Both the position numbers and the translations under genes were made by a program. This document shows positions 4,181 to 9,851 of a DNA stretch of 64,000 bases, in pieces; position 1 is the first letter of the stretch, and each line of letters starts with the position of its first letter. The notes beneath the pieces are model-generated. The model ran no database searches, was not told the DNA's origin, and saw only the letters and a program-made list of their open reading frames with translations. Source of the DNA: Phlebopus portentosus. Taxonomy: Eukaryota > Basidiomycota > Agaricomycetes > Boletales > Boletinellaceae. Where the stretch lies: contig JAYXKI010000003.1 of NCBI GenBank assembly GCA_037892935.1, forward strand, positions 2,294,001 through 2,358,000, in the 5' to 3' direction.

Positions 4181-7100
4181 GTGGTCCGGCCCATTTGTCC
4201 TTCCCTTTCCAGCCTGTCCTTTATCAAAGACACGGGTATCCGGCGGGGACCTCTGACCGTCTGGGAGCATGTAACTTGGCCTATTGTGATTGCTGCGCGC
4301 AGAGAATGTATTTTTTTGTTTTCACTACAAATTCAGCGTGATTGGTCTGGGCTCTGACTGCCGTCTTTATCGAACTTCCTGGTCTTCGTAGGGTGCGCGA
4401 TGCCTTATCAGTAATCAGAGGAACTGAAGGAATTGGAAGTCTCATTTCACTTTCATCTCCTGCATATCTCAAAGGAACTCTCGTAAACCGGGCTTTCGTT
4501 AAACATCGTAAGCTGTGAGAGGAATTTGTAGACGCGTGGGCTTTGATGGGTTCTTTCTTCTTCCTTCTTGCAGTCGGGAAGTCCATCAAAGAAAATTTCA
4601 CTAGACTGTGCTGCTGGCTTCAATATCAATGTTCCATTTGACCTTTTACTAACTTCCTATTGGACTTCTCCGCTCTGGCTAAACAATTATTCTGAGATTC
4701 TATGTGGACGTGGTGAGAGCCTCCAAGACTTATTGAAAGGAAGACGGAACCACGGAATCATACTGTTTACAAAAAACGTCGACAATGACGCTTCCTTCGA
4801 GGGCTTCAATACTTAGTAGTGTCTCCGTCGTCCACATGTGCAAATTTAATTGGACGAGAGATCGACTAGGATCGACAGAGGGCATGAACTGGTGTCAATG
4901 ATCGAAAAGTAGTAATAAAATCTGTTGGATTGCACGCTTCTGAAACGTGCGAAGACGGTGATGAAAAAGAAGGAAAGATGTCGGATAAAGGAGCAGACGA
5001 AGAGAACCAGGAAAGCTGACTCGGAGGTAATCATCCAGCAACGTGTAGTCGTTCTTCTTTCTGCCATGTATACGATACATTTATCGTGATACAATACGAA
5101 TGGCGAAAGCTTCCGTCCACGAGTTGTTGTTGGTGCAGGCTTCCCTTCTGAGGCACTCGTAATTCCAGTCAGCTTCGCTTCTTCGATAACTTCAGTGAAC
5201 GGTGTTTCGAGATAAGGAAGGGGAAATTGAACCGACCGTTCTTTCATAACCGATTAAATCCGTACGGGATTTCAAGTACTCATCATTGTCGGCGGTTGAG
5301 CACGTACTTTTCCGCTTCACAGGTGGTCATGGTATCATGGTATCATGAAGGAAGTTGAGTGGACCCTGTGCCAAGATCGACGTGAGAATCATCTGGTGAT
5401 CCGCGACTGTTTGTTTATGTTGATCTATTTGGCAGTTTCACTTTAGCGCGGCCCACGCGATTGCCAGCATCTGTCCTTCTCTCTTCTTGCATCGCTGGCA
5501 ATGTTAATTTCGACAGCGGACACTTTGGAATCTGTATAGGATGACGGTCGACATAACATAGCGTACATATCGTACGTTGGTCTATTACTTGTCCTTTGTC
5601 TTCCGAGACGAACGCACGCCGGACACGGCTATTTACTATTTGAATTATGCCTATTGCTGATACCGGAGTCTCCGTTTCATCTATCAGACGCTGTGGTACC
5701 TCCGAAGATCCTCGGACACGAGCAACGTCTATACATGTGGCGTTAATCGTTGGTGTCGGCAGATTGGCTTGAGCCCGCGATCTTCTCTTTTGGTACTCCT
5801 CCTCGAGACAAATTGCAAGGCCCTCCCGAACGGTGGTAGCGGGATAGTTTTTCAATCGTTTTTACTTACGAAGGTTCCCGATAACCCTGCAGCACGGGGA
5901 CCAGTGTAGTGTGCCTCGAGAGCTAAACTCTGGCCAGATCCAGGGAGGTGATTCCGCCATCTGGAGGTTCTCTGCCTTTTAGCCGTGCTGGGATCAGATC
6001 TAGAGTATTTGACATTTTAGCAGCGGCCGGTGTCACGATCAAACGTGGCCAGTCTTGTTGATCAGAGCCTACTTCGGGCAGACTCGGACAAATTTCTGCG
6101 TATATTTTACGTGCTTTTCTTTTCAAGCATCTGCTACATTCTGTTGTGTTGTACTTTGTACTTGGGCGACCGACGGCGCTCTATGTGCCCGCGGCTTCTT
6201 CCGGACCAAGGGGCACCGCGTATAGGTAGATTGCCAAGCTCACTAGATTGGCGTTCCTACCATCCGGCATGTCGGATGACATAGAAGGGACAATATTTTA
6301 ATTCCTGTCCCGTAAGGAGCGAAGATTTAGGCGGTCTGCATCTGATTCGATTACCAGATTGGGAATCATGACCAACTTGCATCAACTTCATTTGTTTATT
6401 ACAGCCGTTTGCATTAGTAATGGCACTCCCAAGTGTTTTTGAGTGAAGTAAAGTCATATTATAACACGTGATGAGTGGACTTAGTGAAAAGATTTGGTCG
6501 GATTCGAGGGTCAACAGCATCACAAAACCATCAGTTCCGACTCTTCTTCACTGAAACTTGATTTACATGTGTTACTCATAGAAAGAGAAAAGCAGAATTT
6601 TTCTCAATTGCAATATCTGATGTAGATCTCCTTGGGGTGACTTTCTGTCCACTACTACCTCAAGATTAGAAGACATTCAATTATATTCTATAAATCAATT
6701 CTTTTCTTTCAAATTTTGACAGACAGTAGACGGTCAATAATTAATTTAGGAACTTCTTCTGAGCAATTTGGTTGAGAATTGAGCTCGGGACAAAATGGGT
6801 AGTACCTGAGAAAAGGTGGAAGGCATGCCAGATGTGGAGTTTTTACGGCGAAGTCCATTTTCCCATCTGCTTCCGAAACAAGTTTTCTTCGCTCAAAAAA
6901 AGTCCAGAGTGCCATTACTAATGCAAACGGCTGTAAAATATATGCAGCCTATACGTCGAGTACTCGTACTCGTAACTTGCATCGAACTTCCGTGTCTGGT
7001 TTTTCCCCTCCTTCGTTTGGTCTTCCATCAATTTCCGTCCTTCTCGCGTCTCCAAAAGGCTTGCTGACACGGAAGGTCGCGTATGCATGCGCTTCCTCGG

Positions 7101-7257: not shown

Positions 7258-9192
7258 ATGGCTGACTGGAACTCAGAAGCCGAGATCAAGAAAGATCAAC
7301 GTGAGTTATCGACCGCGCAACTAAGCTTAACATCCACTAATCTAGCATCTCCTCCACAGGTGCATTTGAGAGCTTGATCTATGCTCTTTTCGGTCTCTAT
7401 GTCTGGGAGATGTGTCAGACTTCGAGCATAGAGTGGTCTCTCATTACACGTCGCCGCAAGTTCAGGTGGCCAATGGTACGCTTCAGTTCTTTGAATAAGC
7501 CTCCAAGCTCAACCTTTACTGATTATTCTCTAGAGTACGTAATTCAGAGCCAGTTGGTCTCTGAACTATCCTTTAATGACTGAACTCAGCATTCTACTTC
7601 CTATGTCGATACTGCATGCTGTGGGCACTTATTGGCCTGTAAGATTACACTCCTTCCAGCTGTAGTCTGTGGACTGACCCTCTATTATCAGTATCATATC
7701 CTTCAACGTAACCCGAGAGGTGAGTTCGAACTCTTAAAGTTTACGATGACAAAGAGTCCGAACAAGTCTTGGTTTGGTCAGATTAACTGTGGAGTAAGCT
7801 TCGTTTTCGTATTCTTCATGATTTAATTCTTAGGCAATCTTCACGAAGGCTCTATACACCTTCAATTCTTGGACGGGAAACATGGCGATTCTCAGCGCCT
7901 CCACATCTTTGATGATCCGAACGTACGGATGATCAACAGTGCTATTCTTCATGCAAGTCTCATCGATATTTTATTTTATGTTTCAGGATAGCCATATGGG
8001 AAAGGAAGCTCACAGTCGTTATCCCCTTACTCATCCTATGCTTGGGTCACTGGGGTCTATTGTACCACGGCATCATTATCGTCCGAGCAACTTGGGATCC
8101 AGATACAGGATCCTGCGCCGTGAACCAGACGAATTCGGCTATCCTCAAGTTCACCTTCTTCGCTAGTAGGTTTTTTCACTCCAGACTGGATTCTATGATG
8201 ATCACGATCTGATCGGTAATTCTTGCTCTGTTCTGGTGATGACCAGCTATGGGATTTGATCTTATTATTTTCGTTTTTACGTCCACTGCGCTTCTCAGGA
8301 ATTCTACGAGATCTGGGCTCTGGCATCTTCTTTTCAGAGATGGTCTTATTTACTGGGCTGTGACCTTCTCGGTGAACTCTATTCCTGCAGTAAGAGTGTT
8401 TAACATTCACATTAATTTTGATATTTTCTAAAGACATCGAAAACATTTAGGTCCTGGACAGCTTAGATTTGAATAGTGAGTATTTGGTTCTTGATATCCC
8501 TCAAACATAAATTCTAATGTTCTGATCTAGCTCCAATGAACATGTGAGGTGTTACAATGTCAACAGACTTATCTGAAACTGATGTGGCTTCGCAGTATTG
8601 CCACCGTCCCAGCTGCAACTGTCTCGTAAGTCCTCATCACAATTGCTTAAACCGAATTGGATTCTGAATAAAGCCCAACAGTGCGATCGCCGCTTGTCGC
8701 TGCGTCGTTCGTCTCCAGGAATACGGAACGAGCGATGTTTACGTCAACAACGCGAGCGGTATCGGCTCAATGGACGGCCGTGTGCGATTCTCATCGACGG
8801 CGAATATGGGTATTACCAGCTTTGGGAAAACGTCGCGTATTGTCCAGCGTCCTGAAGTGCACATCCGCACCGATCAGATCACGATGGAAAACCTTGGGTG
8901 AGTAGGCCTTGTGGCGCTTCTTTTACTCCTGATTTTTTCATCACCTGCCTCTTCTGCATACTCGGTCCGAGCTCTGGCTTCTTTTACTCTGAGTCTGATT
9001 GGATTTGCGAAGGAGATGCTAACAAACTTGATTCTTCTTCTGTGATGTGATGTAAACAGTACTATCGAATATGAGGACACGAACGTCGGTTCTGCGATCA
9101 CGACGGATACATTGAAGACTCCGCGAGACCTTGAGGAAGGTCCAGTGAGAGGGTTCGTACATTATGACGATAAGTTCGGTCATCGCGTATAG
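7258..9192 (+). CDS. Agaricomycete-type seven-TM membrane protein of unknown function
   Basis: A rebuilt protein of about 357 residues with seven probable membrane helices: SLIYALFGLYVWEM, FYFLCRYCMLWALIGL, a helix after NSWTGNMAILSASTSLMIRT, LTVVIPLLILCLGHWGLLYH, FDLIIFVFTSTALL, GLIYWAVTFSVNSIPAVLDS and a last helix near NIIATVPAATVSAIAACR. Conserved family landmarks are WSLITRRRKFRWP, INCGAIF, IAIWERK and SGLWHLLFRDGLIYW. The family is abundant in mushroom-forming fungi; its role is unknown to me. The roughly 110-residue tail is soluble and acidic. Start ATG 7258 has a good context and a CT-rich leader. At least eleven introns are needed; two flank a candidate one-base exon at 7534. Confidence 0.8.
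7534..7534 (+). other. Candidate one-nucleotide exon
   Basis: The exon ending RWPM stops at 7475 in phase 0, yet the next conserved exon (7590, encoding FYFLCRYCML) needs one extra base. Between them TTCTCTAG|A|GTACGT supplies an acceptor, one base and a donor. This divides 114 bases into introns of 58 nt (7476-7533) and 55 nt (7535-7589), both typical for this genome. The codon becomes A+CA (Thr). A missing base in the assembly is the alternative. Confidence 0.45.
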
Positions 9193-9851
9193 GTCATCAC
9201 TGTATGTCCTATACTACCATACCCCCGATTCCTCTCTTCGATGTGCACTTCGGCGCAATTTAGTCCTTACCTTCATATTGTTTGTTTAAGGATGTGCTTT
9301 TTAGAGTGAAGAAAACAGATCTAGTACATAGTCATTTTTGGTCATAGCCTAAATTCTTCGCTTTTTGTGTACGTATGTACTAAGCAATAGGTCTGTTTTG
9401 ACATGTTTTGGACTGTGGCTGTTTCTTTGCCCTTCGATCTGATGGGAGGATCGTGTTCACCTGGTAAGGTAACGAACTTGGATCGCAATAAGCTCAGATA
9501 TTGATGGTTCGAAAAGTCAGAACCAAGGGTGTCAATTTGCCATCGACTATATTGGGGGGGGGGGGGAACATCAGCTCTTCAAAATACGAATCTTTCCAGA
9601 TTTCTCCAACACCAAGGTATATTGTCTTACTAAGGTGTCTCTAAACCAGAGTAACGAAATATCTATTGTAACATGATTCAAATCTAAGGATATGCTCATC
9701 GTGCAAACCTATGGAAAACAAGAACTTGTAAGTACCGTTCTTTATCGGCTCGAGGGTCAGACGGATATAAGTAGCGCGAACGAAGATGTTTCGCTTTTCG
9801 TTTTGGAGGCGTGAGGCGGTAGGCGAGAGCAAGAATGACTTCATGGGAGAG
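9193..9851. other. Convergent 3' region
   Basis: The 3' ends of the seven-TM gene and the LLP gene face each other across about 660 bases. Apart from a run of 13 G, I see only low-coding AT-rich sequence that is probably 3' UTR. Confidence 0.5.
9554..9566 (+). repeat. Homopolymer run of 13 G
   Basis: Thirteen consecutive G residues follow ACTATATT in a non-coding stretch. The run could form a G-rich structure and is a likely site of length error or polymorphism. Confidence 0.9.

What the first reader, a model, noticed from the sequence alone, without database searches (positions are those of the whole stretch)
7476..7589. Candidate one-nucleotide exon in a seven-TM gene
The conserved exons before and after this 114-base stretch are out of phase by one base. 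TTCTCTAG|A|GTACGT offers an acceptor, a single base and a donor, and splits the stretch into two introns of 58 and 55 nt with good sites. One-base exons are extremely rare. The competing view is a missing base at the exon edge plus one 114-nt intron.
Basis: partly seen in the sequence, partly recalled or inferred. Interest (0 to 1): 0.75.

Follow-up and report, generated by a model that had tools for sequence, protein, structure and literature searches.

The report
One-nucleotide exon in mushroom membrane gene
A mushroom gene for a seven-helix membrane protein appears to contain an exon of a single base, the smallest exon possible, and related fungi seem to share it, which would explain why computer annotations of this gene often go wrong at exactly this spot.

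Summary
The exons ending at 7475 and starting at 7590 are out of phase by one base. The 114 bases between split into two canonical introns, 58 and 55 nt, around one A at 7534. With that A the gene is one open 353-aa frame over 14 exons; without it the frame breaks. Of the splice patterns enumerated, only this keeps the conserved RWPM-x-FYF motif. Three further lines support it. (1) A paralogue in the same genome has one phase-0 intron there, ending exactly before an intact A-- codon. (2) In 32 of 32 transcript-like homologues spanning the site exactly one codon lies there, against 25 of 144 genome annotations; 45 of the 144 carry an extra valine codon that points to the same one-base mismatch (recounted). 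(3) The S. weigelae protein implies the same second intron. No RNA of this gene was seen and no orthologous DNA could be read. One-nucleotide exons are known in plants (APC11, VPS55) and Fusarium (CYP621A). This is a new member of that kind, in a basidiomycete, and probably old.

The parts
7258..9192 (+). whole coding region of the seven-TM gene, 14 exons, 353 aa (7258-7300, 7360-7475, 7534, 7590-7638, 7692-7719, 7782-7793, 7849-7922, 7987-8165, 8247-8389, 8451-8475, 8531-8543, 8596-8625, 8682-8897, 9060-9192)
   Evidence: conceptual splicing, all GT-AG, open frame of 1062 nt with stop; homologues
7360..7475 (+). exon 2, ends in phase 0 after ...RRRKFRWPM (ATG|GTACGC)
   Evidence: motif conserved in homologues
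7476..7533 (+). intron 2, 58 nt, GTACGC...CTGAT...TCTCTAG; same position and phase as the single intron of the paralogue
7534..7534 (+). one-nucleotide exon, A; first base of the Thr codon A|CA
   Evidence: paralogue codon ATA; homologous transcript-like proteins
7535..7589 (+). intron 3, 55 nt, GTACGT...TTAAT...ACTCAG; the additional intron relative to the paralogue
   Evidence: an intron at the same place is implied by the S. weigelae protein
7590..7638 (+). exon 4, starts with the last two bases of the split codon; encodes (T)FYFLCRYCMLWALIG, in the second helix
7782..7793 (+). 12-nt micro-exon (INCG) in the same gene; another of 13 nt at 8531-8543

Best explanation
The A at 7534 is a one-nucleotide coding exon. 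The spliceosome removes 7476-7533 and 7535-7589 as two separate, canonical, intron-defined introns, most likely one after the other; after either removal the remaining intron still has its own donor, branch-like site and acceptor. The A joins with CA from 7590 to make the codon ACA (Thr) at the start of the second transmembrane helix. It most likely arose when a second intron was gained one base downstream of an older phase-0 intron, inside the first codon after it; the paralogue keeps a one-intron state. The arrangement is probably shared by many orthologues in Agaricomycetes. Shown here: the sequence layout, the frame, the paralogue structure and the pattern among homologous proteins. Inferred: splicing in vivo, constitutive use, order of removal, direction of evolution, and the exact base layout in other species.
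For: Full-length frame with the A, broken frame without it. Of 7 single-intron (GT or GC, at least 30 nt) and 5 two-intron (GT, each at least 40 nt) in-frame patterns, only this one keeps RWPM-x-FYF. Sites of this quality at an allowed place: 18 of 20,000 shuffles. Paralogue L013 has one 72-nt phase-0 intron, TTG|GTATGT...GCGTTAG|ATA TTC TAC TTC. Of 36 transcript-like homologues 32 span the site and 32 of 32 have one codon there (24 I, 3 T, 5 V). Of 144 genome annotations, after recount by eye: 25 one codon, 45 one codon too many, 32 other inserts, 30 with exon skipped, frame shifted or otherwise disturbed, 12 without the upstream exon. The extra residue is V in 45 of 45; the next one (I 22, L 14, F 5, T 2, P 1, V 1) is what results when the donor is moved 4 bases downstream to mend a one-base mismatch (implied fourth donor base A 24, C 15, T 5, G 1; this gene's 13 donors A 9, C 3, G 1). 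Pairs: P0065 WPL-I-FFF against Rhodonia placenta WPL-VL-FFF, 177 of 181 identical; P0021 I against Armillaria borealis VI, 335 of 347; P0008 I against Gloeophyllum trabeum VRVISLPTIV, 347 of 361. The S. weigelae protein equals exon 2 + intron 2 + A read through, then intron 3 removed: 31 of 37 residues, no gap. Junction broken or absent in 111 of 144 annotations, 0 of 30 transcript-like proteins tested (30 of the 32).
Against: No transcript of this gene or species was available. That the short-contig proteins come from RNA is inferred from long uninterrupted frames on contigs of 1.0 to 7.5 kb, not from metadata. No DNA of another species could be read, so the AG-A-GT layout elsewhere is inferred from proteins. 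25 of 144 annotations have one codon without visible trouble, 15 of them V plus one more, so some lineages may have another structure. The S. vaninii annotation (WPM-VRFTSSNKPLSS-TFYF) is disturbed at the spot but does not itself show the one-base exon. Other junctions of the gene are broken or absent in 1 to 38% of annotations, and the divergent C-terminal one in 75%, where 12 of 29 transcript-like proteins are broken or absent too. Intron 3's best branch-like motif is TTAAT, not CTRAY.
Confidence: 0.9

Rival explanations
1. A base is missing from the assembly (or from this strain) at the exon edge, and a single 114-nt intron is removed.
For: The phase problem alone would look the same; one other intron of the gene is longer than 114 nt (162 nt).
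Against: The same one-base mismatch is implied in independent genomes: S. weigelae and 45 annotations with the +4 donor signature. 114 nt is about twice the gene's median intron, and good acceptor and donor sites sit at its middle.
Confidence: 0.04
2. A single intron with an unusual donor mends the frame, for example GC at 7480 (RWPM-VP-FYF), GC at 7456 (GCAAGT, loses KFRWPM) or GT at 7486 (RWPM-VRFT-FYF).
For: Such patterns stay in frame (7 found). GCAAGT at 7456 matches the usual form of a GC donor (recalled). 45 of 144 public annotations of other species use a donor 4 bases downstream by inference.
Against: Transcript-like homologues show one codon in 32 of 32 and never the extra V. W51 and P52 are at least 90% invariant in the aligned family. 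The hexamers GCTTCA at 7480 and GTTCTT at 7486 match the gene's other donors poorly.
Confidence: 0.04
3. The gene is a decaying copy with a real frameshift.
For: The frame is broken if the A is left out.
Against: All other exons join in one open frame of 353 codons with GT-AG sites, and the protein matches its orthologues over its length.
Confidence: 0.01
4. The 114 bases are a nested intron (stwintron) removed in two steps with nothing left behind.
For: Stwintrons occur in several fungal groups (abstract of PMC5639578; listing); two-step removal is expected here too.
Against: Removing the whole stretch breaks the frame. Taking out 7476-7533 first leaves A before a complete donor GTACGT, so these are two adjacent introns rather than one interrupting the other's signal (sequence).
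Confidence: 0.01

Closest known systems
Arabidopsis APC11 single-nucleotide exon (Guo and Liu 2015, PMC4674806; parts 1 and 2 of 3 read)
   Same: One A between AG and GT, needed for the frame, wrong in public annotation; the authors favour intron definition combined with stepwise removal.
   Different: Plant gene, a 422-nt intronic stretch, proven by cDNA and reporter constructs; here the two introns are 58 and 55 nt and there is no RNA proof yet.
Fusarium CYP621A one-nucleotide exon (Nelson and Syed 2026, PMC12940212; parts 1 and 2 of 3 read)
   Same: Fungal nuclear gene, one-base phase mismatch, a 139-nt stretch, conserved among orthologues, found by the same reasoning and backed by 18 RNA reads.
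   Different: Ascomycete, base G as the central base of a Gly codon. The authors suggest origin by base loss and rescue by a cryptic exon; here the paralogue points to gain of a second intron next to an old one.
Plant APC11 and VPS55 1-nt microexons (PMC8831610; 12 of 19 passages shown)
   Same: Well conserved among land plants and missing from reference annotations; in flowering plants one VPS55 clade has the microexon and the other has not.
   Different: Plants; RNA-seq and RT-PCR proof across species.
Stwintrons (nested fungal introns; Flipphi et al. 2017, PMC5639578; abstract and outline read)
   Same: Two short fungal introns side by side, removed one after the other.
   Different: A stwintron is two nested introns in which one interrupts a splicing signal of the other; here one coding base stays between two complete introns.

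Membership tests
single-nucleotide exon | one base flanked by AG upstream and GT downstream | tested here: met
   CTAG|A|GTACGT at 7530-7540, the only AGNGT in the stretch
single-nucleotide exon | the base is required for the reading frame | tested here: met
single-nucleotide exon | both flanking introns are complete and of normal length | tested here: met
   58 and 55 nt, GT-AG, CTGAT and TTAAT near the acceptors; median of the other introns 59 nt
single-nucleotide exon | conservation in orthologues | tested here: inconclusive
   strongly implied by protein evidence but no orthologous DNA could be read
single-nucleotide exon | the base is present in mature mRNA | not testable with these tools
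   no RNA of this gene; related transcript-like proteins agree
stwintron | an internal intron interrupts a splicing signal of an external intron and nothing is left in the mRNA | tested here: not met
   removing all 114 bases breaks the frame
GPCR-like seven-TM proteins | seven transmembrane helices | tested here: met
   predicted model of homologue P0007 has seven long helices; best PDB matches by Foldseek are GPCRs but weak, E 3.8e-4, TM 0.47
GPCR-like seven-TM proteins | sequence match to a known family | tested here: not met
   Pfam: DUF485 E 0.069 and DUF6533 E 3.9, both below cut-off, with the older 358-aa model; no PDB sequence match

The most novel reading that the evidence does not exclude
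An ancient one-nucleotide exon conserved in this seven-TM gene across Agaricomycetes (Hymenochaetales, Polyporales, Agaricales, Boletales, Jaapiales, Gloeophyllales), formed by gain of a second intron one base beyond an old one, kept ever since, and the cause of wrong gene models of this gene in many sequenced species.
Probability: 0.75. Interest if true: 0.72.

Novelty: new member of a known kind. Interest (0 to 1): 0.63.

Why it matters
A one-base exon is the limit of what splicing can handle. The nuclear cases I met in the held library are APC11 and VPS55 in plants and CYP621A in Fusarium. A basidiomycete case shared by many species, with a paralogue that shows a state without the extra intron, would let the origin, persistence and splicing order of such exons be studied in mushrooms with short introns. 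It would also explain a recurring error in public gene models of this family.

Tried and rejected
The 114 bases have no other copy in the genome at E <= 1, so no sign of a mobile intron. A first gene model used the acceptor at 7833 and gave 358 aa with five extra residues; the homologue alignment showed this to be wrong and the acceptor at 7848 was used from then on. Searches used the older version; the junction studied is not touched by the change. Two control patterns (FFxTM and DGL-PA) were badly set (wrong anchor, wrong expected length) and are not used. The pattern gave 23 one-codon, 41 extra-codon, 32 other and 48 without anchor; reading the 48 by eye moved P0120 and P0175 to one codon and P0168, P0170, P0172, P0173 (RWxW in place of WPL) to extra codon, and found 12 without the upstream exon and 30 disturbed. 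An earlier count on the first 120 proteins is superseded. Stwintron, decaying gene and single-intron readings were put aside for the reasons given.

Full report
What was checked. The window lies in an unnamed 38.4-Mb genome of 23 contigs. The closest proteins are from Sanghuangporus vaninii (93%) and S. weigelae (86%), so it is most likely a Sanghuangporus or close kin (inference). The gene runs from 7258 to 9192 on the + strand. Conceptual splicing with 13 GT-AG introns gives 1062 nt, 353 aa and a stop when the A at 7534 is kept. Without it the frame is lost at 7590 and meets a stop in the next exon.

The one-base exon. The 114 bases from 7476 to 7589 hold one AGNGT, at 7532. It splits them into 58 and 55 nt; the other eleven introns have a median of 59 nt (52 to 162). 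The two donors, GTACGC and GTACGT, resemble others in the gene (GTACGG at 7923), the acceptors are TAG and CAG, and branch-like motifs CTGAT and TTAAT lie near them. A site of this quality at an allowed place appears in 18 of 20,000 dinucleotide shuffles; any AGNGT there in 10.7%. In-frame alternatives enumerated: seven with a single GT or GC intron and five with two introns of at least 40 nt, this one included. Only the one-base exon keeps RWPM-x-FYF at its conserved length.

The paralogue. The same genome has one clear paralogue on contig 7 (48% identity over part; L013); a weaker match on contig 12 was not pursued. In L013 the same place reads TGG CCT TTG|GTATGT ... GCGTTAG|ATA TTC TAC TTC, one 72-nt phase-0 intron followed by a whole codon ATA. 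The first intron of the window gene matches it in position and phase, its acceptor also stands before an A, and the second intron cuts the codon after that A. The simplest history is a second intron gained one base downstream of the first; loss in the paralogue is the alternative.

The homologues. Three protein searches, each listing its best 120, gave 182 distinct proteins. I divided them by source: 36 from short environmental or archive contigs only (taken as transcript-like because they hold long frames without introns), 144 other records taken as genome annotations, and 2 in both. Counting residues between WP[LM] and RY: of the 36, 32 span the site and 32 of 32 have exactly one codon there (24 I, 3 T, 5 V); 4 begin downstream. 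The 2 in both also have one codon (I, V). Of the 144 the pattern gave 23 one codon, 41 one codon too many, 32 other inserts, 48 without anchor. Reading the 48 by eye gives the final tally: 25 one codon, 45 one codon too many, 32 other inserts, 30 with an exon skipped, a shifted frame or other disturbance, 12 without the upstream exon. In the 45 the extra residue is always V and the next is I 22, L 14, F 5, T 2, P 1, V 1. That is what a gene finder produces if it moves the donor four bases downstream (GTNN|GT), since four bases mend a one-base mismatch; the implied fourth donor bases (A 24, C 15, T 5, G 1) resemble those of this gene's 13 donors (A 9, C 3, G 1). A control junction in the same proteins (RT-xx-W, intron 7923-7986) is right in 137 of 144 annotations and 34 of 36 transcript-like proteins.

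A second count used pairwise alignment to the nearest transcript-like protein and asked whether 13 residues around each intron position align without gap. At the one-base exon 33 of 144 annotations are contiguous, 103 broken, 8 absent; of the 30 transcript-like proteins used (of 32), 30 are contiguous. Other junctions are broken or absent in 1 to 38% of annotations. The last junction, in a divergent tail, is broken or absent in 75%, but there 12 of 29 transcript-like proteins are broken or absent too.

Pairs from the same or near species are telling. P0065 (transcript-like) and Rhodonia placenta P0085 share 177 of 181 residues, but one has WPL-I-FFF and the other WPL-VL-FFF. P0021 and Armillaria borealis P0026 share 335 of 347: I against VI. 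P0008 and Gloeophyllum trabeum P0041 share 347 of 361: I against VRVISLPTIV. Not every pair differs: P0047 and Thelephora terrestris P0048, and P0044 and Auricularia P0110, both have I. In the first three pairs the I codon begins with A, which the flanking exons as annotated do not supply, so it should come from between them (inference). Their orders are Polyporales, Agaricales and Gloeophyllales; the extra-V signature is also in Coniferiporia (Hymenochaetales), Serpula (Boletales) and Jaapia (Jaapiales). The S. weigelae protein P0002 matches the window read through the first intron and the A with the second intron removed, 31 of 37 residues, no gap. That implies a donor straight after the homologous base in an independent genome. 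The S. vaninii protein P0001 is disturbed at the spot but does not show the exon itself.

The protein. No Pfam family reaches its cut-off and no PDB sequence matches. A model of homologue P0007 has seven long helices (7-34, 53-75, 82-111, 116-138, 158-185, 191-219, 231-260; mean pLDDT 76.9); the best PDB matches are GPCRs, weak (E 3.8e-4, TM 0.47). The codon completed by the A lies at the start of the second helix. What the protein does was not studied.

How it works. Fungal introns of this size are thought to be recognised across the intron (general knowledge). Removing either intron first leaves the other with its own donor, branch-like site and acceptor, so two ordinary rounds of splicing suffice. 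This is the kind of model that Guo and Liu favoured for APC11. The order is not known here.

Known cases. Single-nucleotide exons are reported in Arabidopsis APC11 (PMC4674806, parts 1 and 2 of 3 read), APC11 and VPS55 in land plants (PMC8831610, passages), Fusarium CYP621A (PMC12940212, parts 1 and 2 of 3 read; its abstract calls it the first for a fungal gene), and in mitochondria (PMC5436844, listing only; PMC12308204, passages). My searches listed no basidiomycete case; they cover only the held open-access library, and searches listed only 30 of 189 and 15 of 699 papers. The kind is known; the place, the breadth and the visible one-intron relative appear new.

What remains open. There is no RNA for this gene, no DNA of orthologues could be read, and lineages whose annotations show a single V or I codon may have another structure.

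Noticed in passing
6399-6936: A 538-bp element with 54-bp terminal inverted repeats (87% complementary) lies about 320 bp upstream of the start codon. The genome search scored 37 candidate places; five others cover at least 510 of 546 query bases at 96-99% identity, so it looks like a recently active MITE-like family.
   Followed up: partly
7782-7793, 8531-8543: The same gene has micro-exons of 12 and 13 nt and others of 25, 28 and 30 nt; public annotations are broken there too, though less often.
   Followed up: partly
L013 (G000:C7:801500-806500): Diverged paralogue of the seven-TM gene with one intron where the window gene has two.
   Followed up: partly
9554-9566: A run of 13 G's downstream of the gene.
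   Followed up: no
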